NCBI RefSeq assembly: GCF_003814705.1
Contig: NZ_RKRA01000001.1
Span: 310,001-374,000, forward strand
Origin: Georgenia muralis
Lineage (GTDB): Bacteria; Actinomycetota; Actinomycetes; Actinomycetales; Actinomycetaceae
DNA length: 64,000 nt
Reading direction: 5' to 3'
Shown piece by piece: positions 16,544-29,499 of the stretch. How positions within the stretch are numbered: position 1 is the stretch's first letter; each line of letters begins with the position of its first letter. Made by a program: the position numbers and the translations under genes. The notes beneath the pieces are model-generated. The model saw only the letters and a list, made by a program, of their open reading frames with translations, made no database searches and was not told the DNA's origin.

Positions 16544-17914
16544 CTAGTGGAACTGCTGCTCCTCGGTGGAGCCCCGCAGCGCGAGGGTCTCGCTGTCGGG
16601 GTTGATCGCCGTGGCGACGAGGTCGAAGTACCCCGCGCCGACCTCGCGCTGGTGCTTCGTGGCGGTGTACCCGTGCTCCTCCGCGGCGAACTCCTTCTCC
16701 TGGAGCTCGACGTAGGCACTCATCCCTCGCTCGGCGTAGCCGCGGGCCAGCTCGTACATGCCGTAGTTGAGCTGGTGGAAGCCGGCGAGGGTGATGAACT
16801 GGAACTTGTACCCCAGCGCCCCGAGGTCCTGCTGGAACGTGGCGATCTGCTCGTCGGTGAGGTTGGCCCGCCAGTTGAACGACGGCGAGCAGTTGTAGGC
16901 GAGCAGCTTGCCCGGGTGGCGCTCGTGCACTGCCTCGGCGATCCGCCGCGCGAGGCCGATGTCGGGCGTTGCGGTCTCGACCCAGATGAGGTCGGCGTAC
17001 GGGGCGTAGGCCAGCGCCCGGGCGATGACGGGATCCGGCCCGGGCTCGGTGCGGTAGAAGCCTTCCGGGGTGCGCTCTCCGGTGAGGAACGGCCGGTCGG
17101 TGGGGTCGACGTCGGAGGTGATGAGGTTTGCGCCGAGGGAGTCGGTCCGGGCGACGATCACGGTGGGGACGTCCAGGACGTCGGCAGCCAGGCGGGCGGC
17201 AACCAGGGTGCGCACGTGCTGGGAGGTCGGGACGAGGACCTTCCCGCCCAGGTGGCCGCACTTCTTCTCCGCCGCGAGCTGGTCCTCGTAGTGGATGCCC
17301 GAGGCGCCGGCGTCGATCATGGCCCGGGCGAGCTCGTAGGCGTTGAGGACCCCACCGAAACCGGCCTCGGCGTCGGCGACGATCGGGGCGAACCAGTCGG
17401 TGCCGTCCTGCTCCTCGGACCAGCTGATCTGGTCGGCTCGGCGTAGCGCGTTGTTGATCCGGCGCACGACCGTCGGGACCGAATTCACGGGGTAGAGGGA
17501 CTGGTCGGGGTACGTCTCGCCCGCCGTGTTGCCGTCACCGGCCACCTGCCAGCCGGACAGGTAGATCGCCTGCAGGCCGGCGCGCACCATCTGGACGGCC
17601 TGGTTGCCGGTGATCGCGCCGAGGGCGTGGACGTAGTCCTCGGTGTGCAGCAGCTCCCACAGCCGCTGGGCGCCCCGACGGGCGAGGGTGTGGTCCTCAC
17701 GCAGCGTCCCGCGCAGCCGCACGACGTCCTCGGCGGTGTAGCTGCGCCGAACCCCCGCCCAGCGCGGGTCGCTCGCCCAGCGACGCTCGAGCTCGGCTGC
17801 CTCGGTACGGATGCGCTCGGCGGTCGTCGTGGTGGTCGTGGTGGCGGTCGTGGTGGCGGTCGTGGTGGCGGTCGTGGTGGCGGTCGTGGTGGTCGGTTCC
17901 AGGGTGGTGGTCAT
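16544..17914 (-). CDS. aceA: Isocitrate lyase
   Basis: 456 aa. Cleaves isocitrate to glyoxylate and succinate, allowing growth on acetate and fatty acids. The catalytic signature KKCGHLGGK is at residues 217-225 with Cys219. [40 protein letters not shown] and [20 protein letters not shown] are also typical. The first 31 residues are nearly pure Thr/Ala (TTTA units), encoded by about five copies of a 12-bp repeat (17834-17890); the family domain starts at about residue 32. The ATG at 17914 has an AGGAG ribosome-binding site. It is divergent from the RamB-like regulator, a conserved arrangement. Confidence 0.97.
17834..17890. repeat. 12-bp coding repeat in the aceA N-terminus
   Basis: Four to five perfect copies of GGTCGTGGTGGC, in frame, encode the Thr/Ala tail of isocitrate lyase. 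It lies just inside the start codon, so expansion or contraction would alter only a disposable tail. Confidence 0.9.
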
Positions 17915-17944: not shown

Positions 17945-18028
17945 GTGAACTTCTGCGTTCCTCTACTCTGGCGACGTGACGTGGCTCACAGACAGCACTA
18001 GGTTGAGTGAAGTTCGACCGATCTTCAC
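17945..18028. promoter_or_regulatory. Candidate regulator sites in the aceA-ramB divergent region
   Basis: The 127-bp space between aceA and the divergent regulator holds two copies of GTGAASTTC: GTGAACTTC at 17945-17953 and GTGAAGTTC at 18007-18015. The second is half of a perfect inverted repeat, GTGAAG (18007-18012), 10-bp spacer, CTTCAC (18023-18028). They flank the region where both promoters must lie. By analogy with RamB autoregulation and control of aceA/aceB, they are good candidate binding sites. The sequence differs from the published corynebacterial RamB core, so this is inference. Confidence 0.45.
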
Positions 18029-18041
18029 GGAGGGAGAAGAA

Positions 18042-19499
18042 GTGTTGGAGGAGCCGGAGGTAGATCTGCCGACGCTCGGACGCCGCGTCCGGCACGCGCG
18101 GCAGCAGGCGGGCCTGACGCTGGCGGACCTGGCGGCGCGCGTGGAGCGGGCGCCCTCCCTGCTCTCGCAGATCGAGAACGGCCGCCGGGAGCCTCGGCTA
18201 GCCCTGCTCTCCCACGTCGCCCGGGAGCTGGGCGTCACGGTCGCCGACCTCATGCGTCCCGAGGCTCCGTCCCGGCGGGCCGCGCTCGAGCTGGCGCTCG
18301 ACCAGGCGCAGGCGCGACCGCAGTATGCGGCGCTGGGCCTGCCGCGGGTGCGGGCCGGCGCGAAGGTGCCCGACGAGGCCCTCGAGGCGCTCGTCGGCCT
18401 CCACGAGGAGCTGCAGCGCCGGGCCGAGATCCGCGCGGCCACCCCGGAGGAGGCCCGGCGCGCCAACGCCGCCCTGCGCCACAAGATGCGCGCGAGGCAC
18501 AACTACTTCGCCCACATCGAGTCGCTGGCGTCCGCGATCTCCGCTGCGGTCGAGCACACCGCAGGCCCGCTCACCGAGCGCGGTGTCGCCGCGGTGACCG
18601 CGCACCTCGGCTTCACGCTCCACCGGGTCACCGACCTGCCCCGCTCGACGCGCTCCATCTCCGACCTGCGCAACCGCCGGATCTACCTGCCCGTCGAGGT
18701 CCGCGGCGGGCACGACCCCCGCCTGATCGTCCTGCAGACCCTGGGCCACTTCGCCCTGGAGCACTCCGACCCCACGGGCTACGCCGACTTCCTGCGCCAA
18801 CGCGTCGAGGCGAACTACTTCGCCGCCGCGCTGCTCATGCCCGAGCGACCTGCCGTGGAGTTCCTCGTCGCGGCGAAGGCGGAGCGGTCCCTGGCGATCG
18901 ACGACCTCCGGGACACCTTCGCCGTCTCCTACGAGACCGCCGCGCACCGGTTCACCAACCTCGCCACCGAGCACCTCGAGCTGCCCGTGCACTTCATGCG
19001 CGTCGGTGAGGACGGGGTCATCTACAAGGCGTACGAGAACGACCGGGTGACTTTCCCCACCGACGTCACCGGGGCGATCGAGGGGCAGATCGTGTGCCGG
19101 TACTGGGCCTCCCGGCAGGTCTTCCACAACCCCGACCGCTACGCAACGCACTACCAGTACACCGACATGGGGCGCGGGACGTACTGGTGCACCACCCACG
19201 TCGAGCGCACCGCGGACGGCGACTTCGCGATCGACGTCGGTGTGCCGTTCGAGCACGTGAGGTGGTTCCAGGGCCGGGAGACGACGCTGCGGGCACGATC
19301 GTCATGCCCGGACCCGGCCTGCTGCCGCCGGCCACCGGCGGAGCTCGCCGACCGGTGGTCCACGCACGCCTGGCCGAGCGCACGGGCCCACAGCCACCTC
19401 CTCGCCGCCATCCCCCCCGGGACGTTTCCCGGTGTCGACGACACCGAGGTCTACGAGTTCCTCGACCGCCACAGCGTCACCGAGGCGCAGGTGCGGTGA
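18042..19499 (+). CDS. ramB: RamB-like XRE-family regulator of acetate metabolism
   Basis: 485 aa from the GTG at 18042, chosen because AGGGAGAAGAA lies just upstream; a longer form from 17976 is possible. The N-terminal HTH is RVRHARQQAGLTLADLAARV plus PSLLSQIENGRREPR. The centre has an ImmA/IrrE-like fold with LQTLGHFALEHSDPTGYADF (degenerate HExxH) and RVEANYFAAALLMPE. The C-terminal DUF2083 part has VCRYWASRQVFHNPDRY, YWCTTHVE and a Cys-rich RSSCPDPACCRR. This architecture is that of RamB and the short-chain fatty acid regulators of actinobacteria, which control aceA/aceB. The divergent position beside aceA supports the call. Confidence 0.9.
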   Translation: MLEEPEVDLPTLGRRVRHARQQAGLTLADLAARVERAPSLLSQIENGRREPRLALLSHVARELGVTVADLMRPEAPSRRAALELALDQAQARPQYAALGLPRVRAGAKVPDEALEALVGLHEELQRRAEIRAATPEEARRANAALRHKMRARHNYFAHIESLASAISAAVEHTAGPLTERGVAAVTAHLGFTLHRVTDLPRSTRSISDLRNRRIYLPVEVRGGHDPRLIVLQTLGHFALEHSDPTGYADFLRQRVEANYFAAALLMPERPAVEFLVAAKAERSLAIDDLRDTFAVSYETAAHRFTNLATEHLELPVHFMRVGEDGVIYKAYENDRVTFPTDVTGAIEGQIVCRYWASRQVFHNPDRYATHYQYTDMGRGTYWCTTHVERTADGDFAIDVGVPFEHVRWFQGRETTLRARSSCPDPACCRRPPAELADRWSTHAWPSARAHSHLLAAIPPGTFPGVDDTEVYEFLDRHSVTEAQVR

Positions 19500-19842: not shown

Positions 19843-20589
19843 CCGTCCTCCGCTCCTCGCACGTGCCTCCACATCAGCATCGCCGAGGACCGCATGCCGT
19901 GACGCCCTCGTCCCCAGCCTCCGCAATCAACGACCACCCACAGGCTCGCGGGCCATGGGTGAACGCGCGGACCCGGCGGTTTCGGGAGGAGGCCGACCAT
20001 CCGTGCCCGAAGCCCCCGCCGCCTCCGGCTCATGACCAGCGACGCAGACAGGGGCACCAGGACGTTGCTCGGAGCGATGTCGGCGATCCGGAATTCCCGT
20101 TCGCCCAGACGTCACCCCCGTCCGATGGGTGCTCATCCGTCGGCAGATCGAGCACGGCGAGTCGGCAGATCGGGGCACGCTCAGTCCGCCCCCAGTCCAC
20201 CCTTGAGCACGCTCCGTCCGCCCCCAGTCCACCCTTGAGCACGCTCCGTCCGCCCCCAGTCCACCCTTGAGCACGCTCCGTCCGCCCCCAGTCCACCCTT
20301 GAGCACGCTCCGTCCGCCCCCAGTCCACCCTTGAGCACGCTCAGCACGAACGAACGCCTGCAACGAGATCGAGCGTGGGTGACAGGAACGGACTCGGCGT
20401 CCGCTTCGGCGCACACGGTTCTCGATCAGCCGACAGTCCCCGAACCAGCACCCGGACCCGGGCCTTCGACGCAACGGGACCAGGCCGCATCAAGACCCGG
20501 GCCACGATCCGACCGGGGCCACAACGAGACACTGCCCGGGACCCTGTGGGTCCCTGGCGCGACGCTGCCTCGGCTGGGACCATCGAGTC
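19843..20589. other. Gene-poor 747-bp stretch with tandem repeat
   Basis: No convincing gene was found on either strand. The open frames across this region are produced by the repeat and by GC bias, and have no ribosome-binding site or recognisable domain. Two copies of GTCGGCAGATCG (around 20138 and 20161) precede a perfect 32-bp x 5 tandem array. Base composition is slightly lower in GC than in the neighbouring genes around 20030-20180, so a degraded gene or an insertion scar is possible. Confidence 0.6.
20178..20337. repeat. Perfect tandem array, 32-bp unit x 5
   Basis: Five uninterrupted copies of a 32-bp unit, beginning CGCTC and ending TTGAGCA. Only the sixth base of the first copy (A instead of C) differs. 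Each unit junction carries the small inverted repeat GAGC-AC-GCTC, and the core has CCGCCCCCAGTCCACCC. The period is not a multiple of three, so it is not a coding repeat, and there are no spacers, so it is not CRISPR. It is a minisatellite, possibly with repeated protein-binding sites. Confidence 0.95.
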
Positions 20590-21249: not shown

Positions 21250-23937
21250 CTACGGCGCCACGGCGAAGACGCCGTGCGCGCCACGCTCGGCGTCGACCAT
21301 CGCGTGCGAGACGAACGGGTACGTGCCGGCCTCGGGGAACGTGAGCTCGACGAACCCGCCCTGCGCCGCGACGAGCGGCAGCACCTGTGCTCCACCGGTG
21401 GGCTCGCCCGCCGCCTCCGGCCCGCCGAGCAGGTAGGCGCCCTCGGTGTAGACGGTGTCGAACTGACCGCCGACCACGTGGAAGGCGCTGCCGCGGGACG
21501 GTCCGGCGTCGAGGACCCATACCCGGACCCGCTCACCCACCCGGGCGACCAGCGGCTCGTGGTCGTACTGGTTGGCATAGCCGTTGAAGACGACCAGGTC
21601 CGGCTGCTCGGCACCGATCTTGGTGGCGTCGGCGGGCCCGCCGACCGACCCGAGGTAGACCTCGGACTGGACGAGGACGTACTCACGGTCCACGGGCTCC
21701 AATCCGGGCGGGTCGATGATCACCGCACCGAACATGCCGTTGGCGATGTGCATCGACATCGGCATGGTCGAGCAGTGGTACATCCAGATCCCGCTGCGGG
21801 TCGCGGTGAACCGGTAGGTGAGGGACTCCCCCGGTGCGATGGTGCGCATGGGCCGGTCCGGTGCGAAGGCGCCGGCGTGGAAGTCGATCGAGTGCCCGAT
21901 GGTCCCGTCGTTGACGAGGGTGATGTCGAAGACGTCCCCGACCGATCCCCGCAGCGTCGGGCCCGGTGCCGTGCCGCCGAACGTCCACCGTTCCTGCTCG
22001 ACGCCCGGCGCCACCTCGACCGTGGTCTCGGAGACGGTGAGGGTGACCTCGTGGACCGTCGCGCCCGGCGCCGGCGCCAGGGTGGCGTCGTGGGCGGAGA
22101 AGTCCGCTCCGGGGGTGGCCATGAGGTCGAGGAGGTCCGCCGCGGCCGGGCCGTCGGCATTGCTGCCGGAGGGGGCGTGGTCACCGGAGGGGGCGAGATC
22201 GCCGGAGGGGGCGAGATCGCCGGAGGCGGCGTGGTCACCGGCGGTGACCGGCTCGCGCGGGACGCCGGAACCGGTGACGACGACGTCCAGGGTCATCCCC
22301 ATCTGCCGGTGCCCCGCCACGGAGCACCAGCCCTCGAGGTCGGCGCCCACCACCCCTGCCTCGAGCGTCGCTCGCTCGCCCACCCCGAGACGGCCGGTCG
22401 TCGCCCCGCTGGCCAGGACGAGGTCGTGCACGTCGGCGCCCGTGTTGGTGAGCTCGATGACGAGCTCGTCGCCGGCGGGGACCTCGACGACATCGGGGAC
22501 GAACCGCATGCCCTCCACGCGCACCTCGACGGTCGTGGTGCGTCCGGTCGCTGCGACACCGTCCGCGGCCGAGGCCGTGCCGAGCCCGGCCGCGGCGGGG
22601 TCGCCCGCGACCCCGAGCACCACCGCGAGGGCGACAGCCGCGGCGCCCCACACCCCGCCGAGCCGGCGCGGCTGCGCCGGCGGGCCCAGCGGCAGGCTCG
22701 TGGCGAGCAGGTCGTCGTCGCGGCGGCGGGCAGCCCGGCGGCGCTCGAGGCCCGCACGGGCGAGGAGGACGAGGAACGACGCCAACGCGGCCAGCCCCAG
22801 CAGGGAGGTGGTCACCCGCACGAGCGAGGGCAGGGGCAGGACGAAGAGGACGAGGCAGGCGTTGGTCACGACGACCCGCGCGACCGCGGCCCGGTCCATC
22901 TCTCGGTTCACGGCCCGCACCACCGACGGTCCGCCACCGAGCATCACGGGCGCGAGGTAGCTGAGGGCGCCGAGCAGCACCTGGGCGGCGAAGCCCACCG
23001 CGAACGGGGCCACGAGCGCGCCGAGGCGGTCCGGCACGGCGGCCGGCGCCGGAGCGGTGGCGACGACGACGCCGAGGGCGGCCGCGGTTCCGGCGAGCCA
23101 CGCCACCGCCGCCGCCGCGGAGAGGGGCGCGAAGGATCGGGGCGGGCTCACCCGGGCAACGGTCACCATCGGCCGGACGAGGACGCCCAGCCCCGTCAGG
23201 TAGAGCGCGACACCCGCCGGCACGGCGAGGGCCAGGCCCGCGAGCGCCCCGGCGGCCGCGACGGCGACGCCGGCCAGGAGCAGCCACAGGGCGCGTCCCG
23301 CGGCGAGCGGCGCACTCTCGACCATCTTCGTGCGCAGCATCGTCGGCCACAGCACCACGAGTGTGCCGAGGACGGTGAGCCCGACGAACCCCAGCAGCAT
23401 CACGGTGACGTGCGCCCCGTACAGGCCCGCGTGGGTGGCGGCGTCGGCGCCCGGCCGGGCGAGGAGCACGCCCAGCACGGCACCGGTCGCGAGCGCCCCG
23501 GCGGCCGCGAGGTAGTAGCGCGACAGGGCCCCGAACCGGGCCATGAGGGCTCCGCGGCGCTGGCGGGCGATGACCGCGCCGTGCACGAGTGCGGTGGTGG
23601 CGACGAGGAGGCCGCCGGCCGTCGTCAGCGTCTCGTGGCCCGTCGACAGCCCGGCGACGACGCCCAGCGCCCCCGCGTTGTGGGCGGCGAGGCGCACCAC
23701 CATGAACCGCTGGCCGCCGGGGGCGGGCCGGCCGAGGAGGGTGTCGGCGAAGTGGGCGGACCAGATGAGGATCGCGGAGCCGACCGCCCCGAGGAGCAGG
23801 AGGTGGGTCATGAGCCACCCGGCACCCGGCACCCAGCGGTGGACGACGGCGACGACGACCGCGGCGACGAGCCAGGCGACGACGACGGCGTTGACGCGCA
23901 CGTGCCAGGTGCGCCTGTCCAGCCCGGGCGCGCTCAT
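21250..23937 (-). CDS. nirK: Copper nitrite reductase fused to membrane domain and cupredoxin
   Basis: 895 aa from the ATG at 23937 (ATGA overlap with the upstream gene). Residues 1-450 hold about 11-12 membrane helices resembling NnrS/heme-copper-oxidase-like proteins. Residues 465-555 are a cupredoxin with His504, Cys538, His543 and Met546/548 as likely type-1 copper ligands. A linker of GDLAPS repeats (567-590) leads to the CuNIR domain (about 625-895). Type-1 ligands appear as His682, Cys722, His730 and Met735; type-2 ligands as His687, His721 and His820; catalytic Asp685 sits in HSIDFH. By my hand alignment the second catalytic His of classical NirK is Asp810. Expected to reduce nitrite to NO outside the membrane, with the cupredoxin relaying electrons. 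A multicopper oxidase with another substrate is possible. Confidence 0.85.
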   Translation of the reverse strand: MSAPGLDRRTWHVRVNAVVVAWLVAAVVVAVVHRWVPGAGWLMTHLLLLGAVGSAILIWSAHFADTLLGRPAPGGQRFMVVRLAAHNAGALGVVAGLSTGHETLTTAGGLLVATTALVHGAVIARQRRGALMARFGALSRYYLAAAGALATGAVLGVLLARPGADAATHAGLYGAHVTVMLLGFVGLTVLGTLVVLWPTMLRTKMVESAPLAAGRALWLLLAGVAVAAAGALAGLALAVPAGVALYLTGLGVLVRPMVTVARVSPPRSFAPLSAAAAVAWLAGTAAALGVVVATAPAPAAVPDRLGALVAPFAVGFAAQVLLGALSYLAPVMLGGGPSVVRAVNREMDRAAVARVVVTNACLVLFVLPLPSLVRVTTSLLGLAALASFLVLLARAGLERRRAARRRDDDLLATSLPLGPPAQPRRLGGVWGAAAVALAVVLGVAGDPAAAGLGTASAADGVAATGRTTTVEVRVEGMRFVPDVVEVPAGDELVIELTNTGADVHDLVLASGATTGRLGVGERATLEAGVVGADLEGWCSVAGHRQMGMTLDVVVTGSGVPREPVTAGDHAASGDLAPSGDLAPSGDHAPSGSNADGPAAADLLDLMATPGADFSAHDATLAPAPGATVHEVTLTVSETTVEVAPGVEQERWTFGGTAPGPTLRGSVGDVFDITLVNDGTIGHSIDFHAGAFAPDRPMRTIAPGESLTYRFTATRSGIWMYHCSTMPMSMHIANGMFGAVIIDPPGLEPVDREYVLVQSEVYLGSVGGPADATKIGAEQPDLVVFNGYANQYDHEPLVARVGERVRVWVLDAGPSRGSAFHVVGGQFDTVYTEGAYLLGGPEAAGEPTGGAQVLPLVAAQGGFVELTFPEAGTYPFVSHAMVDAERGAHGVFAVAP
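22170..22245. repeat. 18-bp coding repeat in the nirK linker
   Basis: Near-identical 18-bp units (GGAGGGGGCGAGATCGCC and variants), in frame with the gene, encode the hydrophilic GDLAPS/GDHAPS linker between the cupredoxin and the nitrite reductase domains. Being a multiple of three, the copy number can change without a frameshift, so the linker length probably varies between strains. Confidence 0.7.
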
Positions 23938-25109
23938 GCCGGGCGCTCCGTGCCGCGCACGGCCGACCACGCGGCCACGGCGACGAAGGCCAGCACCGCC
24001 ACGATGTTGACGACGCCGCCCGCCTGGACCGCCCAGGTCAGGCCCCGCGCGTCGCCCACCGCCAGGCGCAGGACGAGGGAGGCGTGCAGGAGGACGACCG
24101 GCGCGTACATGAGCCGGTGGTAGGGCAGCGGCCGGCGCAGCACCGCGGGGAGGATGACGGGGGCGTGGGCCATGATCATCGGCAGGACGAACCCGAGCAT
24201 GACGGCGTGGAGGACGGCGTCGTAGGCCGGTCCCTCGACGACCTCCCCGCCCAGCGCCCAGATCGCCCCGGCCACCGCGAGCCACGCGTACCCGGCGAGC
24301 AGGCTGACGGCGACGAAGCGCGGCAGACCGGCTCCGGTGACCGTGCGTCGCGCGACGTCGCGCCGGGCCAGCCAGCCGGCCACCCCCAGGAGCGCGAGCC
24401 CGGTCAAGGTGTGACCGGCGTCGGGTGCGAGCAGGGAGAGCGCGGCGGCCGCCAGCACGAGGATCGCGAGCGCCGTCGCCGACCGCCCGGCTCCCGGGCT
24501 GAGCACGGCGACGCGAGCGAGCTCGAGCCGTTCGCCGAAGATCGTCAGGACGAGGTAGCCGCTCAGCCACGGCACGAGCGAGGGCACCGGGACGCCGCCG
24601 GCCCACAGGATCGCCGCGCCGAGCGCCATGACGGCGCCGAGCACCTCGATGGTGACGGCCGGGGCGGGCTGGCGGGCGTGGAGCCGGCCGTACACGGCGA
24701 GGGTGAGGACCTGGGCGAGGACGAGCAGGCCCTGGCCCGCCGCGAGGGGAAGGGGAGAGACCAGGGCGAGGACGGCGAGCCCGGACACGGCGGGCGCGGC
24801 GTAGCCCCACGGCAGGCCGAGCGCGACCGCCCGCTCCAGCGCGATGACGGTGCCGACGAAGCCGAGCACCATCAGCGGTCCGTGGACGGCGGGCAGCCGC
24901 TCGAGCCCGAGGATCGGGCCGACGAGCTGCGGGAGGCCGAGCAGCCCGAGCGCGGCGTCGAGCCCGAGGATCAGGGCGATCCCGCCGGGGGCGAGCAGTG
25001 CCCCGCGGAAGGCCGGCCGGCTTCGCCAGGGTCGCACGACCGGGCGGGCGGCCGTGCGCACAGCCGTCGCCGCCGCGGTGCCCGACGTGCCCGTCACGGT
25101 GCCGGTCAT
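23934..25109 (-). CDS. NnrS-like polytopic membrane protein of the nirK operon
   Basis: 391 aa from the ATG at 25109, overlapping the regulator stop by 4 bp and overlapping nirK by 4 bp. About ten to twelve membrane helices fill the protein. Conserved-looking His motifs are AVHGPLMVLGFVGTVIALER (about residue 75), VLHAVMLGFVLPMIMAHAPV and PYHRLMYAPVVLLHASLVLR. NnrS proteins are haem/copper membrane proteins linked to NO metabolism, and this protein also resembles the N-terminal membrane half of the downstream nitrite reductase. A role in electron delivery, NO handling or copper supply to NirK is inferred from the operon. Confidence 0.7.
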   Translation of the reverse strand: MTGTVTGTSGTAAATAVRTAARPVVRPWRSRPAFRGALLAPGGIALILGLDAALGLLGLPQLVGPILGLERLPAVHGPLMVLGFVGTVIALERAVALGLPWGYAAPAVSGLAVLALVSPLPLAAGQGLLVLAQVLTLAVYGRLHARQPAPAVTIEVLGAVMALGAAILWAGGVPVPSLVPWLSGYLVLTIFGERLELARVAVLSPGAGRSATALAILVLAAAALSLLAPDAGHTLTGLALLGVAGWLARRDVARRTVTGAGLPRFVAVSLLAGYAWLAVAGAIWALGGEVVEGPAYDAVLHAVMLGFVLPMIMAHAPVILPAVLRRPLPYHRLMYAPVVLLHASLVLRLAVGDARGLTWAVQAGGVVNIVAVLAFVAVAAWSAVRGTERPA

Positions 25110-25951
25110 GCCGGGCCCACCCGCAGGCCCGCGGCGCCGGCGTCGGCCCCGACGTGCAGGAGGCAGGCACCCGGTTCGACGAAGGCCGCCAGGCTCACCT
25201 GGCCGGGCTCGACCCCGGACGAGGAGAGGATCTCCCGCGCCATGCCGAGATGGGCGTTGCACACGACCTCCGGCCGCTCCCGCGCCAGCTCGAGCACCGG
25301 GCAGCGCCCCAGCCGAACCGTGCTGACGGCGCCGTCGTGGCGGGTGCCGGAGTCGAACCCGGCGCGGTCGAGCATCGCGGCGAGACGGTCGACGGCGTCA
25401 CGACGCACGCGAGCGGAGGGCACCCGGGCCGCCGGCGTGGCAGGTCCGCCCGTCGGCGTGGCCCGTCCGCCCCTCGCCGCCGCACCTCCCCCGGCGTTCG
25501 CAGCACGCCCACCGGCGCCGTCCGCCGTCCGGTCACCGGCCAGCTCGCGGTCGCGCTCGACGATGGCGCGACCCCAGGAGCGGCCGGCCTCGAGCGCGTG
25601 GTCGCGCAGCACCGGGCCGTCGGGGACGGTGCGGGTGAGGTAGGAGACGAGCACCCGGGCCAGGACCGCGTACTCCGGGCTCGTGAACGACGCCTCCGGC
25701 GCGTAGGTGTAGACCGACGCCGGGCGGCCCCGGCCGGCCGGCGGCAGGTGGTCGCGGCGCGCCAGGCCCGCCCGGGTCAGCGCCTCGAGGTGCTCGCGGA
25801 CGGTGTTCGGGTGCTGACCGAGCGTCCGGGCCACCCGGGTGACGGTGAGCGGCTCGTCCTGCTCCACCAGCTGGTCGAGGACCGCGCGCCGCGGCTCGGA
25901 CAGCTGTGCCCGACGGTCGGCGCGGGACGGACGGGGACCCAATTTCTCCAC
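25106..25951 (-). CDS. ArsR/SufR-like winged-helix regulator with three cysteines
   Basis: 281 aa from the GTG at 25951. Longer GTG/ATG starts up to 26086 are in frame, but a good promoter lies just upstream of 25951. The N-terminal winged helix has RRAVLDQLVEQDEPLTVTRV, LGQHPNTVREHLEALTRAGL and GRGRPASVYTYAP. A Gly/Ala/Thr-rich insertion occupies about residues 138-180. The C-terminal part carries Cys217 (GRCPVLELA), Cys231 (VVCNAHLG) and Cys263 (GACLLHV), spaced much like the Fe-S cluster ligands of SufR. It is the first gene of the nirK operon (4-bp overlap with the next). A cluster-based NO or redox switch for nirK is the natural hypothesis. Confidence 0.82.
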   Translation of the reverse strand: MEKLGPRPSRADRRAQLSEPRRAVLDQLVEQDEPLTVTRVARTLGQHPNTVREHLEALTRAGLARRDHLPPAGRGRPASVYTYAPEASFTSPEYAVLARVLVSYLTRTVPDGPVLRDHALEAGRSWGRAIVERDRELAGDRTADGAGGRAANAGGGAAARGGRATPTGGPATPAARVPSARVRRDAVDRLAAMLDRAGFDSGTRHDGAVSTVRLGRCPVLELARERPEVVCNAHLGMAREILSSSGVEPGQVSLAAFVEPGACLLHVGADAGAAGLRVGPA

Positions 25952-26161: not shown

Positions 26162-26475
26162 CCGGCCGGAGATGTCACGGTGGGACGTCCCGTCGTGCTG
26201 GCCGTGCCGGAGGTCGTGCGCGGCCCTGGACGCCCCATGCGGTGGCCGGACGACTCGTCCTCCGGACGCCGCTGCCCGGCCGATGGGCTGCGGTGGCCGG
26301 AAGGTCGCGGCCCGCGGACCCTGCCGGGTCGGCCCCAGCCGGCCGGGCTGGCCGCGTGCGCCGCCCCGCGAACGGTCGGGACAGCACGCACGACAGCAAC
26401 GACGGCGCCCGGTCCGGGCGCTGTCATCACGCGCGGACGACGCTCAGGCGCCGTTCACGCCGGAGGAAGAACGAG

Positions 26476-27678
26476 GTGAGCGTGAGCGCCATTCACGCCG
26501 AGCACGTCTACAAGGTCTTCGGCCGACGGTCCGCCGAGGCCGTCCGACGGCTGGAGGAGGGACACAGCCGCGAGGAGGTCCGCCCCCTGGGGACGGCCGC
26601 CGTCGCCGACGCCAGCTTCGAGGTCCGCAGCGGCGAGACGTTCGTCGTCATGGGCCTGTCGGGATCGGGGAAGTCGACGCTGATCCGGATGCTCAACGGG
26701 CTCCTCGCTCCGACGGCGGGCACGATCTCCGTCGACGGCCGCGACATCTCCGGCATCGCGCCCGCCGAGCTGCGCGAGATCCGCCGCCGGAAGGTGTCGA
26801 TGGTCTTCCAGCACTTCGCCCTGCTGCCCCACCGCACCGTGCTCGACAACGCCGCCTACCCCCTGGAGATCCAGGGCGTGGACCGGTCGAGCCGGCGCGA
26901 CAAGGCCGCGGAGGCGCTCGCCATGACGGGCCTGGCCGGGTGGGAGGACTCCTTGCCGTCCCAGCTCTCCGGCGGCATGCGCCAGCGCGTCGGCCTGGCC
27001 AGGGCCCTCGCCGCCGACACCGACATCCTCCTCATGGACGAGGCGTTCTCCGCCCTCGACCCGCTCATCCGCCGCGAGATGCAGGACCAGCTCGTCGAGC
27101 TCCAGGCGAACTTGGGCAAGACGATCGTCTTCATCACGCACGACCTCAACGAGGCCATGTACCTCGGTGACCGGATCGCCGTCATGCGCGACGGCCGCAT
27201 CGTCCAGATCGGCACCGCGGAGGCGATCCTGAACTCCCCCGCCGACGAGTACGTCGCCCAGTTCGTCGCCGATGTCGACCGCTCCCGCGTCCTGACCGCG
27301 AGCTCGCTCATGACCCGGCCGGTCGTGACCGTCCCGCTGTCCGGCGGACCGTCGGTGGCGCTGCGCGCCCTGCGCGAGGCCCAGGTCTCCGCCGCCTACG
27401 TCCTCGACCGGCGCCGGGTCCTGCACGGGTCGGTCTACGACGACGAGCTGCTCGCCGCCCACCAGGAGGGCCGGGAGAGCCTCGACGGGCTCGTCCACCC
27501 GGACTCCTCCGCCGTCGGACCCGACGCCCCGCTGTCGGAGATGTTCGCCCCGGCCGCCGAGGCGCGGCTGCCCCTGGCCGTCGTCGACGAGCAGAACCGG
27601 CTCCAGGGCGTGGTGCCTCGCGTGGCGCTGCTCGAGGCGATGGCACCGGCCCCCGCGACCGAAGGAGCGACCCGATGA
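26476..27678 (+). CDS. proV: Glycine betaine/proline-type ABC transporter ATP-binding protein
   Basis: 400 aa from the GTG at 26476, with GGAGG about 10 bp upstream; a second GTG at 26482 is possible. It begins with the ProV/OpuAA-specific segment HVYKVFGRRSAEAVRRLEEG. Walker A is GLSGSGKST (60-68), the Q-loop VSMVFQHFALLPHRTVLDN, the signature LSGGMRQRVGLARALA and Walker B ILLMDEAFSALDPL. The C-terminal 120 residues form a CBS-like pair (SLMTRPVVTVPLSGG onward), which in OpuA senses ionic strength or c-di-AMP. It is the first gene of a three-gene importer operon, overlapping the permease gene by 4 bp. Confidence 0.94.
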   Translation: MSVSAIHAEHVYKVFGRRSAEAVRRLEEGHSREEVRPLGTAAVADASFEVRSGETFVVMGLSGSGKSTLIRMLNGLLAPTAGTISVDGRDISGIAPAELREIRRRKVSMVFQHFALLPHRTVLDNAAYPLEIQGVDRSSRRDKAAEALAMTGLAGWEDSLPSQLSGGMRQRVGLARALAADTDILLMDEAFSALDPLIRREMQDQLVELQANLGKTIVFITHDLNEAMYLGDRIAVMRDGRIVQIGTAEAILNSPADEYVAQFVADVDRSRVLTASSLMTRPVVTVPLSGGPSVALRALREAQVSAAYVLDRRRVLHGSVYDDELLAAHQEGRESLDGLVHPDSSAVGPDAPLSEMFAPAAEARLPLAVVDEQNRLQGVVPRVALLEAMAPAPATEGATR

Positions 27679-28535
27679 CCTACCGCATCCCGCTCGGCGA
27701 CTGGGCCGACTCCTTCGTCGGCTGGCTCACGTCGGCCCTCGGCGCGGTCTTCGACCTGCTCGGCGCCGTCCTGCGAGGGTCCTACGACCTCGTCTTCCCT
27801 GTCCTGGCCACGCCCCCGTTCCTGGTGGTGGCCCTCGTCCTCGCCGCGGCGGCGTTCGCCGCGAAGGGCTGGCGCCTCGCCGTCGGCAGCCTCCTCGGGT
27901 TCGCCGTGATCCGTGGGGTGGACCAGTGGGACAACGCCATGGCGTCGCTGGCACTGGTGCTCGTCGCCAGCGTCATCGCCCTCGCCGTCGGCATCCCGGT
28001 GGGCATCTGGGCCGCGCGCAACGTGCGGGTGTCGGCCGCCGTGCGCCCCGTGCTGGACTTCATGCAGACCATGCCGGCGTTCGTCTACCTCATCCCCGCC
28101 GTGGTGCTCTTCCGCGTCGGGGTGGTCCCGGGGCTCGTGGCCACGATCATCTTCGCCCTCGCCCCGGGGGTGCGCTTCACCGAGCTCGGCATCCGGCAGG
28201 TCGACGGCGAGGTCGTCGAGGCCGGCCACGCCTTCGGCGCGACCCCCGGGCGCATCCTGCGCCAGGTCCAGCTCCCGCTCGCCCTGCCGACCATCATGGC
28301 CGGCGTCAACCAGGTGATCATGCTGGCGCTGTCGATGGTCGTCATCTCCGGGATGGTCGGCGCCGCCGGGCTCGGCCAGGACGTGGTCCAGGCCCTGCAG
28401 CGGGTCGACATCGGCCTGGGCTTCGAGGCAGGGCTGTCCGTCGTCGTCCTGGCCATGTACCTCGACCGCGTCACCGCCGCCCTGGGCGACCGATCCCCCG
28501 TCGCGCGGGCCCTCAAGGTCCGCGCGGCCGCCTGA
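27675..28535 (+). CDS. proW: Glycine betaine/proline-type ABC transporter permease
   Basis: 286 aa with an ATGA overlap with the ATPase gene. Membrane helices fill residues 20-270. The permease-specific pattern is present: MQTMPAFVYLIPAVVLFRVG, then the cytoplasmic EAA-type loop FGATPGRILRQVQLPLALPT, followed by IMAGVNQVIMLALSMVVISG and AAGLGQDVVQALQRVDIGLG. All of these are signatures of ProW/OpuAB. It forms the channel for the substrate delivered by the lipoprotein encoded 49 bp downstream. Confidence 0.94.
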   Translation: MTYRIPLGDWADSFVGWLTSALGAVFDLLGAVLRGSYDLVFPVLATPPFLVVALVLAAAAFAAKGWRLAVGSLLGFAVIRGVDQWDNAMASLALVLVASVIALAVGIPVGIWAARNVRVSAAVRPVLDFMQTMPAFVYLIPAVVLFRVGVVPGLVATIIFALAPGVRFTELGIRQVDGEVVEAGHAFGATPGRILRQVQLPLALPTIMAGVNQVIMLALSMVVISGMVGAAGLGQDVVQALQRVDIGLGFEAGLSVVVLAMYLDRVTAALGDRSPVARALKVRAAA

Positions 28536-28584
28536 CCCGCACACCAGACCGTCGAGCGCACCCGCGCTCAAGGAAGGAAACACG

Positions 28585-29499
28585 ATGATGAACATCAGCG
28601 CGCGCCGTCGGGGCGCCGCCATCGCGACCGGCACCGCCCTCGCGCTCACCCTTGCCGCCTGCGGCGGGACCGACGCGGAGTCCGGCGCCGACGGCACCGG
28701 GAGCGGGACGGACGCCGGCCCCATCACGATCGGTGTCCACTCCGGCTGGGACGAGGGCATCGCCGTCTCCCACCTGTGGAAGAACATCCTCGAGAGCGAG
28801 GGGCACGAGGTCACCCTCGAGACCGCCGACGCAGGTGTGGTCTTCACCGCCCTCGCCGAGGGCGACTACGACCTCAACTTCGACACGTGGCTGCCCCTGA
28901 CGCACGCCTCCTACATGGAGCAGTACGGCGACCAGCTCGAGGAGCTCGGCACCTGGTACGACGACGCCAAGCTCACCATCGCGGTGAACGAGGACGCTCC
29001 GGTCGACTCCCTCGCCGAGCTCGCGGAGAACGCCGACGCGTTCGACAGCCGGCTCGTGGGCATCGAGGCGGGCGCCGGGCTGACCGAGACCACCCAGGAG
29101 GCGGTCATCCCGACCTACGGCCTGGAGGACATGGAGTACCTCATCTCCTCGACCCCGGCCATGCTGGCCGAGCTCGACTCCGCCACCGCGGCAGGGGAGA
29201 ACATCGCCGTCACGCTGTGGCGTCCGCACTGGGCGTACGACGCCTACCCGATCCGGGACCTCGAGGACCCCGAGGGCACCCTCGGCGACGCCGAGGAGAT
29301 CAAGGTCATGGGGACCGCGGGCTTCTCGGATGACAACGCCGACGTCGCGGGCTGGATCGAGGGCTTCACCCTCACCGACGAGCAGCTGTTCTCGCTCGAG
29401 AACATCATGTTCAACGAGATGGGCGGCGAGGACAACGACGCCGCGGTCGAGGCCTGGCTGGAGGGCAACCCCGACTTCGTCGAGGGCATCACCGGCTGA
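28585..29499 (+). CDS. proX: Glycine betaine/choline-type ABC substrate-binding lipoprotein
   Basis: 304 aa with a strong ribosome-binding site (AAGGAAGGAAA) before a double ATG; the second ATG at 28588 would also do. Signal peptide with lipobox LTLAACGG (Cys26). The binding-protein domain follows: ITIGVHSGWDEGIAVSHLWK, YDLNFDTWLPLTHASYMEQY, VGIEAGAGLTETTQEAVIPT and VTLWRPHWAYDAYPIRDLED. The aromatic-rich WLPLTH and WRPHWAYD segments match the betaine cage of OpuAC/ProX proteins. It completes the importer. Mature protein acidic, as usual for secreted actinobacterial proteins. Confidence 0.93.
   Translation: MMNISARRRGAAIATGTALALTLAACGGTDAESGADGTGSGTDAGPITIGVHSGWDEGIAVSHLWKNILESEGHEVTLETADAGVVFTALAEGDYDLNFDTWLPLTHASYMEQYGDQLEELGTWYDDAKLTIAVNEDAPVDSLAELAENADAFDSRLVGIEAGAGLTETTQEAVIPTYGLEDMEYLISSTPAMLAELDSATAAGENIAVTLWRPHWAYDAYPIRDLEDPEGTLGDAEEIKVMGTAGFSDDNADVAGWIEGFTLTDEQLFSLENIMFNEMGGEDNDAAVEAWLEGNPDFVEGITG

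What the first reader, a model, noticed from the sequence alone, without database searches (positions are those of the whole stretch)
21250..25109. Membrane-cupredoxin-CuNIR fusion with an NnrS-like companion
The 895-aa protein joins an NnrS-like polytopic membrane domain, a complete cupredoxin (His504, Cys538, His543, Met546/548) and a copper nitrite reductase in one chain. Classical NirK is a soluble enzyme of about 360 residues that depends on a separate cupredoxin or cytochrome. Here the donor and anchor are fused, and a repetitive linker of variable length separates donor and enzyme. The neighbouring gene encodes another NnrS-like membrane protein, so the pair could form a quinol-to-nitrite electron path in the membrane. 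Motifs are read from sequence; the electron path is inference.
Basis: partly seen in the sequence, partly recalled or inferred. Interest (0 to 1): 0.75.

Follow-up and report, generated by a model that had tools for sequence, protein, structure and literature searches.

The report
Membrane-anchored, cupredoxin-fused copper nitrite reductase
An actinobacterium carries a nitrite-reducing copper enzyme joined in one chain to a small copper protein and a 12-helix membrane part; this build is already known in actinobacteria, but its membrane part and its neighbour gene look related to respiratory oxidases and their job is untested.

Summary
It ends a three-gene operon (regulator, 12-helix companion, fusion) joined by two ATGA overlaps. 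The organism is a Georgenia.

The architecture is not new: Decleyre et al. 2016 (PMC4770552) describe ~900-aa actinobacterial NirK with a 400-aa transmembrane domain "of unknown function" plus a cupredoxin.

The parts
21250..23937 (-). Fusion gene: 12-TM region, TM13, cupredoxin, linker, copper nitrite reductase (895 aa)
   Evidence: ORF and start/stop checked; 18 full-length relatives at 96-42% identity
22711..23916 (-). Residues 8-409: 12 transmembrane helices; His45, His62, His119, His176 conserved
   Evidence: AlphaFold2 helices; the four His are kept in 77, 76, 72 and 77 of 77 sequences; PF00115 COX1 matches in 4 of 77 relatives, best E 1.2e-5, below Pfam's cut-off
22603..22659 (-). Residues 427-445: 13th helix, anchor/export segment before the cupredoxin
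   Evidence: in 5 clearly split relatives the cupredoxin-NirK gene has such a hydrophobic segment of its own
22270..22545 (-). Residues 465-556: cupredoxin (His504, Cys538, His543, Met548)
   Evidence: Pfam Cupredoxin_1 E 1e-6; ligands 74 of 74
22096..22269 (-). Residues 557-614: repetitive linker; 18-bp repeat at 22166-22241
   Evidence: (pLDDT under 50 at 560-593)
21253..22095 (-). Residues 615-895: copper nitrite reductase core (type 1: His682, Cys722, His730, Met735; type 2: His687, His721, His878; Asp685, His820)
   Evidence: residues 74 of 74, Met735 72 of 74. Ligand roles assigned from recalled NirK numbering and the alignment
23934..25109 (-). Companion: 12-TM protein with heme-copper-oxidase subunit I fold; His76 (TM2), His301 and His315 (TM10)
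25106..25951 (-). Winged-helix (ArsR/IclR-like) regulator with conserved Cys217, Cys231, His234, Cys263
   Evidence: Pfam HTH_20 E 7.3e-11; the four residues 18 of 18; ATGA overlap with the companion. The GTG start is my choice

Best explanation
It is a membrane-bound, donor-fused copper nitrite reductase of the known actinobacterial kind. The NirK core and the cupredoxin lie outside the membrane, held by TM13 and the 12-helix region. I infer that the 12-helix region is a heme-copper-oxidase-like module that binds b-type heme on its conserved His (His45/His176 near the outer face, His62/His119 near the inner face) and passes electrons from menaquinol to the cupredoxin, then to the type-1 copper and to nitrite at the type-2 copper, releasing NO. 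The flexible linker lets the cupredoxin swing between donor and enzyme. The companion is a second, separate heme-copper-oxidase-fold protein, probably heme-binding and concerned with NO. Shown: the parts, residues, topology prediction, companion fold, operon and conservation. Inferred: heme, quinol oxidation, electron direction and the companion's role.
For: NirK and cupredoxin ligands complete and conserved. Predicted 12 TM + TM13 with Lys/Arg on the inner side puts the copper domains outside. His45 and His176 in 77 of 77 and 20 of 20; His62 76 of 77 and 16 of 20; His119 72 of 77 and 19 of 20. The membrane part travels with the enzyme: fused in 76 of 80 loci, separate but adjacent in 5 clear cases; distance matrices of membrane part and NirK correlate at 0.83, best of 500 permutations 0.11 (relatedness not removed). 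Membrane region: COX1 profile matches in one register in five Georgenia-like relatives; internal repeat TM1-4/TM5-8, E 3.6e-4, reversed 0.05-0.07. NarG over its cut-off in 20 of 27 genomes with this gene against 6 of 32 without.
Against: No family model names the membrane region, and the window's own protein has no COX1 match; the COX1 matches are below Pfam's cut-off and all come from one group of close relatives. The profile score between fused region and companion (27-42) is not clearly above controls: most reversed controls scored 14-23, but the companion against its own reverse scored 27.8. No quinol site was identified. Decleyre et al. (passages) report that in the known cupredoxin-NirK the extra cupredoxin lies too far for effective transfer and that its type-1 mutant was more active, which weakens the donor idea. 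The predicted model cannot place the cupredoxin against the enzyme. 1 of 80 loci (L111) has the membrane gene without NirK beside it.
Confidence: 0.48

Rival explanations
1. The membrane region is only an anchor (or assembly aid). Electrons reach NirK through the cupredoxin from the cytochrome bcc complex, as for other reductases outside the membrane.
For: About 500-aa actinobacterial NirK without a transmembrane domain exist (passages); the Intrasporangium study treats NirK as an electron exit downstream of the Rieske protein (passages). Split relatives keep an own hydrophobic segment on the cupredoxin-NirK gene.
Against: A plain anchor does not explain four conserved His inside predicted helices, Gln319, Trp280 and Arg354 without exception in 74-77 sequences, or 12 helices, nor why a separated membrane gene stays next to the enzyme gene.
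Confidence: 0.26
2. The membrane region and the companion handle the NO product (binding, scavenging or sensing it), like NnrS-type proteins, rather than donating electrons.
Against: Neither protein keeps a CuB-type His set, so catalysis as in NOR is unlikely. Genomes without the companion do not carry qNor instead: 0 of 10 have it, against 26 of 69 with the companion, so it does not behave as a substitute.
Confidence: 0.2
3. The C-terminal domain is a laccase-like multicopper oxidase or copper-resistance oxidase without nitrite activity.
Against: Asp98- and His255-equivalents and three type-2 His are kept in 74 of 74; best PDB matches by sequence and fold are NirK; it co-occurs with NarG.
Confidence: 0.05

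Closest known systems
Actinobacterial ~900-aa NirK (Propionibacterium acnes type; Decleyre et al. 2016, PMC4770552, passages read)
   Same: 400-aa N-terminal transmembrane domain, cupredoxin with CX4HX4M, NirK core; about 900 aa
   Different: Nothing in the architecture. The paper calls the membrane domain of unknown function; companion gene, operon and HCO-fold kinship are not in the passages I saw
Hyphomicrobium denitrificans cupredoxin-NirK (2dv6, 6tfd, 6tfo)
   Different: No membrane region; soluble hexamer (recalled)
NnrS (PF05940)
   Same: His in TM2 and TM10; companion aligns over 339 columns, E about 0.002
   Different: No Pfam match of the window's proteins; fused region shows no similarity to NnrS
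Heme-copper oxidase / NO reductase subunit I (PF00115)
   Same: Companion has the whole fold; relatives of the fused region have faint sequence matches
   Different: No CuB His set; companion keeps a TM2/TM10 His pair plus His315; fused region has its His in TM2, TM4 and TM6
HCO Homology (HCOH) proteins, Pei et al. 2014 (doi 10.1002/pro.2503; not held; abstract recalled; cited in PMC4602095, passages)
   Same: As recalled: 12-helix HCO relatives, NnrS among them, with few His, proposed to act in denitrification or NO detoxification
   Different: I could not check whether this companion or the fused region is among the families that paper lists
Chloroflexi NirK with cytochrome and N-terminal cupredoxin (PMC8756737, passages)
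   Same: A cupredoxin N-terminal to NirK in one chain
   Different: Cytochrome c instead of a membrane region; the authors say it may be an assembly artefact

Membership tests
Copper nitrite reductase (NirK) | Type-1 Cu ligands (2 His, Cys, Met) | tested here: met
   His682, Cys722, His730 74 of 74; Met735 72 of 74
Copper nitrite reductase (NirK) | Type-2 Cu His triad and catalytic Asp/His | tested here: met
   His687, His721, His878, Asp685, His820 74 of 74
Copper nitrite reductase (NirK) | Curated family score (TIGR02376 cut-off 296 bits) | tested here: not met
   164 bits, E 5.5e-48; this lowers the equivalog label, not the site and fold evidence
Copper nitrite reductase (NirK) | Two-domain cupredoxin fold like solved NirK | tested here: met
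Copper nitrite reductase (NirK) | Nitrite to NO activity | not testable with these tools
   No assay
Actinobacterial TM-cupredoxin-NirK fusion | Transmembrane domain + CX4HX4M cupredoxin + NirK in about 900 aa | tested here: met
   definition
NnrS (PF05940), companion | Pfam NnrS match over cut-off | tested here: not met
   No match in own genome; 2 of 58 companions match, best E 0.033
NnrS (PF05940), fused membrane region | Pfam NnrS match or profile similarity | tested here: not met
   No NnrS match in 20 or 77 members; profile score 15, reversed control 19-21
Heme-copper oxidase superfamily, companion | 12-TM subunit I fold | tested here: met
Heme-copper oxidase, companion | CuB His on TM6/TM7 and HxH on TM10 | tested here: not met
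   No His on TM6 or TM7 of the window's companion; TM10 His are 14 apart
Heme-copper oxidase superfamily, fused membrane region | 12-TM subunit I fold | tested here: inconclusive

The most novel reading that the evidence does not exclude
The fused 12-helix region is a degenerate heme-copper-oxidase module turned into a two-heme transmembrane wire (outer His45/His176, inner His62/His119), so one polypeptide is a complete menaquinol:nitrite oxidoreductase that bypasses the cytochrome bcc complex; its repeat units may be shifted by one against the oxidase order (His176 like the oxidase TM2 His, His45 like the TM10 His), and the HCO-fold companion handles NO in organisms that lack any NO reductase.
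Probability: 0.2. Interest if true: 0.72.

Novelty: new member of a known kind. Interest (0 to 1): 0.4.

Why it matters
How actinobacterial NirK is fed with electrons and where its NO goes are left open in the papers seen (passages). The conserved His pairs and the HCO-fold companion turn both questions into simple tests: heme content, menaquinol-driven nitrite reduction, and NO release with and without the companion. If the wire reading is true, this is a nitrite reductase that needs no separate electron carrier.

Tried and rejected
Laccase reading: rejected on type-2 residues and fold. NnrS membership of the fused region: rejected by Pfam and profile tests. Companion as a stand-in for qNor: the expected inverse pattern is absent; 0 of 10 companion-less genomes have qNor, 26 of 69 others do, Fisher p 0.026, relatedness not removed. 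Companion absence was searched genome-wide only in the 19 genomes without it beside the fusion; a copy in two pieces (L082) counts as present. Circular shift of repeat units: tested by reordering units of the companion, NnrS and COX1 alignments against the fused region. Shifted orders scored 41.8 against 27.5 in register, but two non-cyclic orders scored 40.4 and 42.5, so a shift is not shown; COX1 and NnrS gave no useful score in any order. Profile comparison of either membrane protein with a COX1 set from relatives: nothing above controls. PDB sequence searches with two membrane profiles: 0 matches at E up to 5. Promoter scan upstream of the regulator: none; two imperfect inverted repeats, not followed. 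Paper searches; of what I opened, only PMC4770552 describes the fusion.

Corrections: L041 and L046 were labelled split; one search shows a run of unknown bases (L041) and a probable frame break after TM13 (L046), so 5 of 7 splits are clear. The tree count of 4 changes (2 forced by well-supported branches) used all 7 labels and was not redone. Three NnrS yardsticks were in a wrong frame and replaced. G051, one of the 27 carriers, has only membrane region and cupredoxin, and G038 (L049) has frame breaks; without G051 the NarG count is 20 of 26 against 6 of 33. Rows dropped: A4 uses 73 of 76 fused loci (not L079, L108, L127); A5 is the window plus 57 of 60 companions (not L069, L079, L130); A6 is the window plus 76 of 80 loci (not L069, L079, L100, L130). 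Five plasmid records with NirK gave one NnrS fragment, so S. meliloti pSymA and its relatives supplied the yardstick.

Full report
Observation. The window is G000:C1:310001-374000 of a 4.14-Mb genome. A genome of the same genus (G005) has a contig of the same length as Georgenia subflava NZ_VUKD01000005.1, so the source is a Georgenia. On the minus strand three genes overlap by ATGA: a winged-helix regulator (25106-25951), a 12-helix protein here called the companion (23934-25109) and the 895-aa fusion (21250-23937). On either side lie unrelated genes: a DUF1349 protein and a glycine-betaine ABC transporter.

The linker. An 18-bp unit repeats 4.2 times, and the profile-defined gap between cupredoxin and NirK varies from 30 to 81 residues in 76 loci.

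The membrane region. It has 12 predicted helices plus TM13. With the N-terminus inside, inner loops hold 10 Lys/Arg and outer loops 2, which puts the cupredoxin outside (counted). Four His stand out: His45 and His176 (outer halves of TM2 and TM6; 77 of 77), His62 (76 of 77) and His119 (72 of 77), on the inner halves of TM2 and TM4. In 20 more diverse relatives the counts are 20, 20, 16 and 19. The window's region matches no Pfam or NCBIfam model. The only Pfam family that recurs is COX1: 2 of 20 (L033 and L026) and 4 of 77 (L053, L056, L058, L059), best E 1.2e-5. All are Georgenia or close kin, below the cut-off, and map helices 5-9 onto COX1 helices 1-4. TM1-4 and TM5-8 resemble each other at E 3.6e-4, reversed control 0.05-0.07. 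Against the companion the profile score is 29 in the larger sets and 34-48 in the smaller ones; most reversed controls gave 14-23, but one reached 27.8. I read this as a probable, unproven heme-copper-oxidase-type fold.

Distribution and history. A scan with the membrane region found 432 relatives; the best 80 are all actinobacteria. Of these 80, 76 have membrane region, cupredoxin and NirK in one frame, 60 have the companion within 600 bases, and 48 have a regulator relative in the locus, 39 of them upstream on the same strand. The four others are two frame-broken copies, one truncated copy and one membrane gene without NirK. Of 59 relatives of the window's genome (itself included) 30 had any match; I count 27 with this gene, one of them (G051) without the NirK part. 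Five clear cases have the membrane gene separate and directly before a cupredoxin-NirK gene with its own hydrophobic segment. On a NirK tree of 46 rows the fused/split label needs 4 changes, at least 2 by well-supported branches, with two doubtful labels. Distances in membrane region and NirK correlate at 0.83. Of 641 plasmid records with a match none covers 80% of the chain in one place.

Context. NarG over its cut-off occurs in 20 of the 27 carriers and 6 of 32 non-carriers, p 2.4e-5, relatedness not removed. The window's genome has NarG, one full-length COX1-family protein and a short COX1 fragment, no qNor cytochrome domain and no PF00042 globin. Of 79 genomes behind the 80 loci (two loci share one), 26 have qNor. 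The companion is missing from 10 of 79, and none of those ten has qNor. So the companion does not replace qNor in any simple way; what removes NO in these bacteria stays open, as Pold et al. 2024 also say (passages).

What is known. Decleyre et al. 2016 (passages) state that the ~900-aa P. [quoted passage not shown] The finding is therefore a new member of a known kind. The data on other cupredoxin-NirK quoted there argue that a fused cupredoxin need not be the donor.

Verdict. The architecture is real and known; the electron path is plausible and untested; the NnrS label should be replaced by 'heme-copper-oxidase-fold companion' for the neighbour and 'probable HCO-like 12-helix module' for the fused region. 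On rechecking I lowered the best explanation from 0.50 to 0.48, because one control was higher than I first reported, and raised two rivals by 0.01 each.

Noticed in passing
window 25106-25951: Regulator of the operon keeps three Cys and one His (Cys217, Cys231, His234, Cys263) in 18 of 18 relatives; the pattern suggests an iron-sulfur or NO-sensing switch.
   Followed up: partly
L111:4242-7188: A metagenome genome has regulator plus the 12-helix gene but no cupredoxin-NirK beside it; a methyltransferase-like frame follows. The only such copy in 80 loci.
   Followed up: partly
L052:5935-8607 (also L031): Georgenia subflava carries a second fusion copy without regulator or companion in the locus.
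   Followed up: no
L049:4344-7126: A small-genome relative has the companion's C-half in frame with a helix-cupredoxin-NirK and no 12-helix region found, but with frame breaks; may be decayed or a sequence error.
   Followed up: partly
window 20175-20342: 32-bp tandem repeat, 5.2 copies at 99% match, close to a DUF1349 gene.
   Followed up: no
window 17819-17897: 12-bp tandem repeat, 6.5 copies, near an HTH + IrrE-like (Peptidase_M78) regulator gene at 17976-19499.
   Followed up: no
window 26401-29499: Glycine-betaine ABC transporter genes (ATPase with CBS, permease, OpuAC) divergent from the nitrite operon.
   Followed up: no
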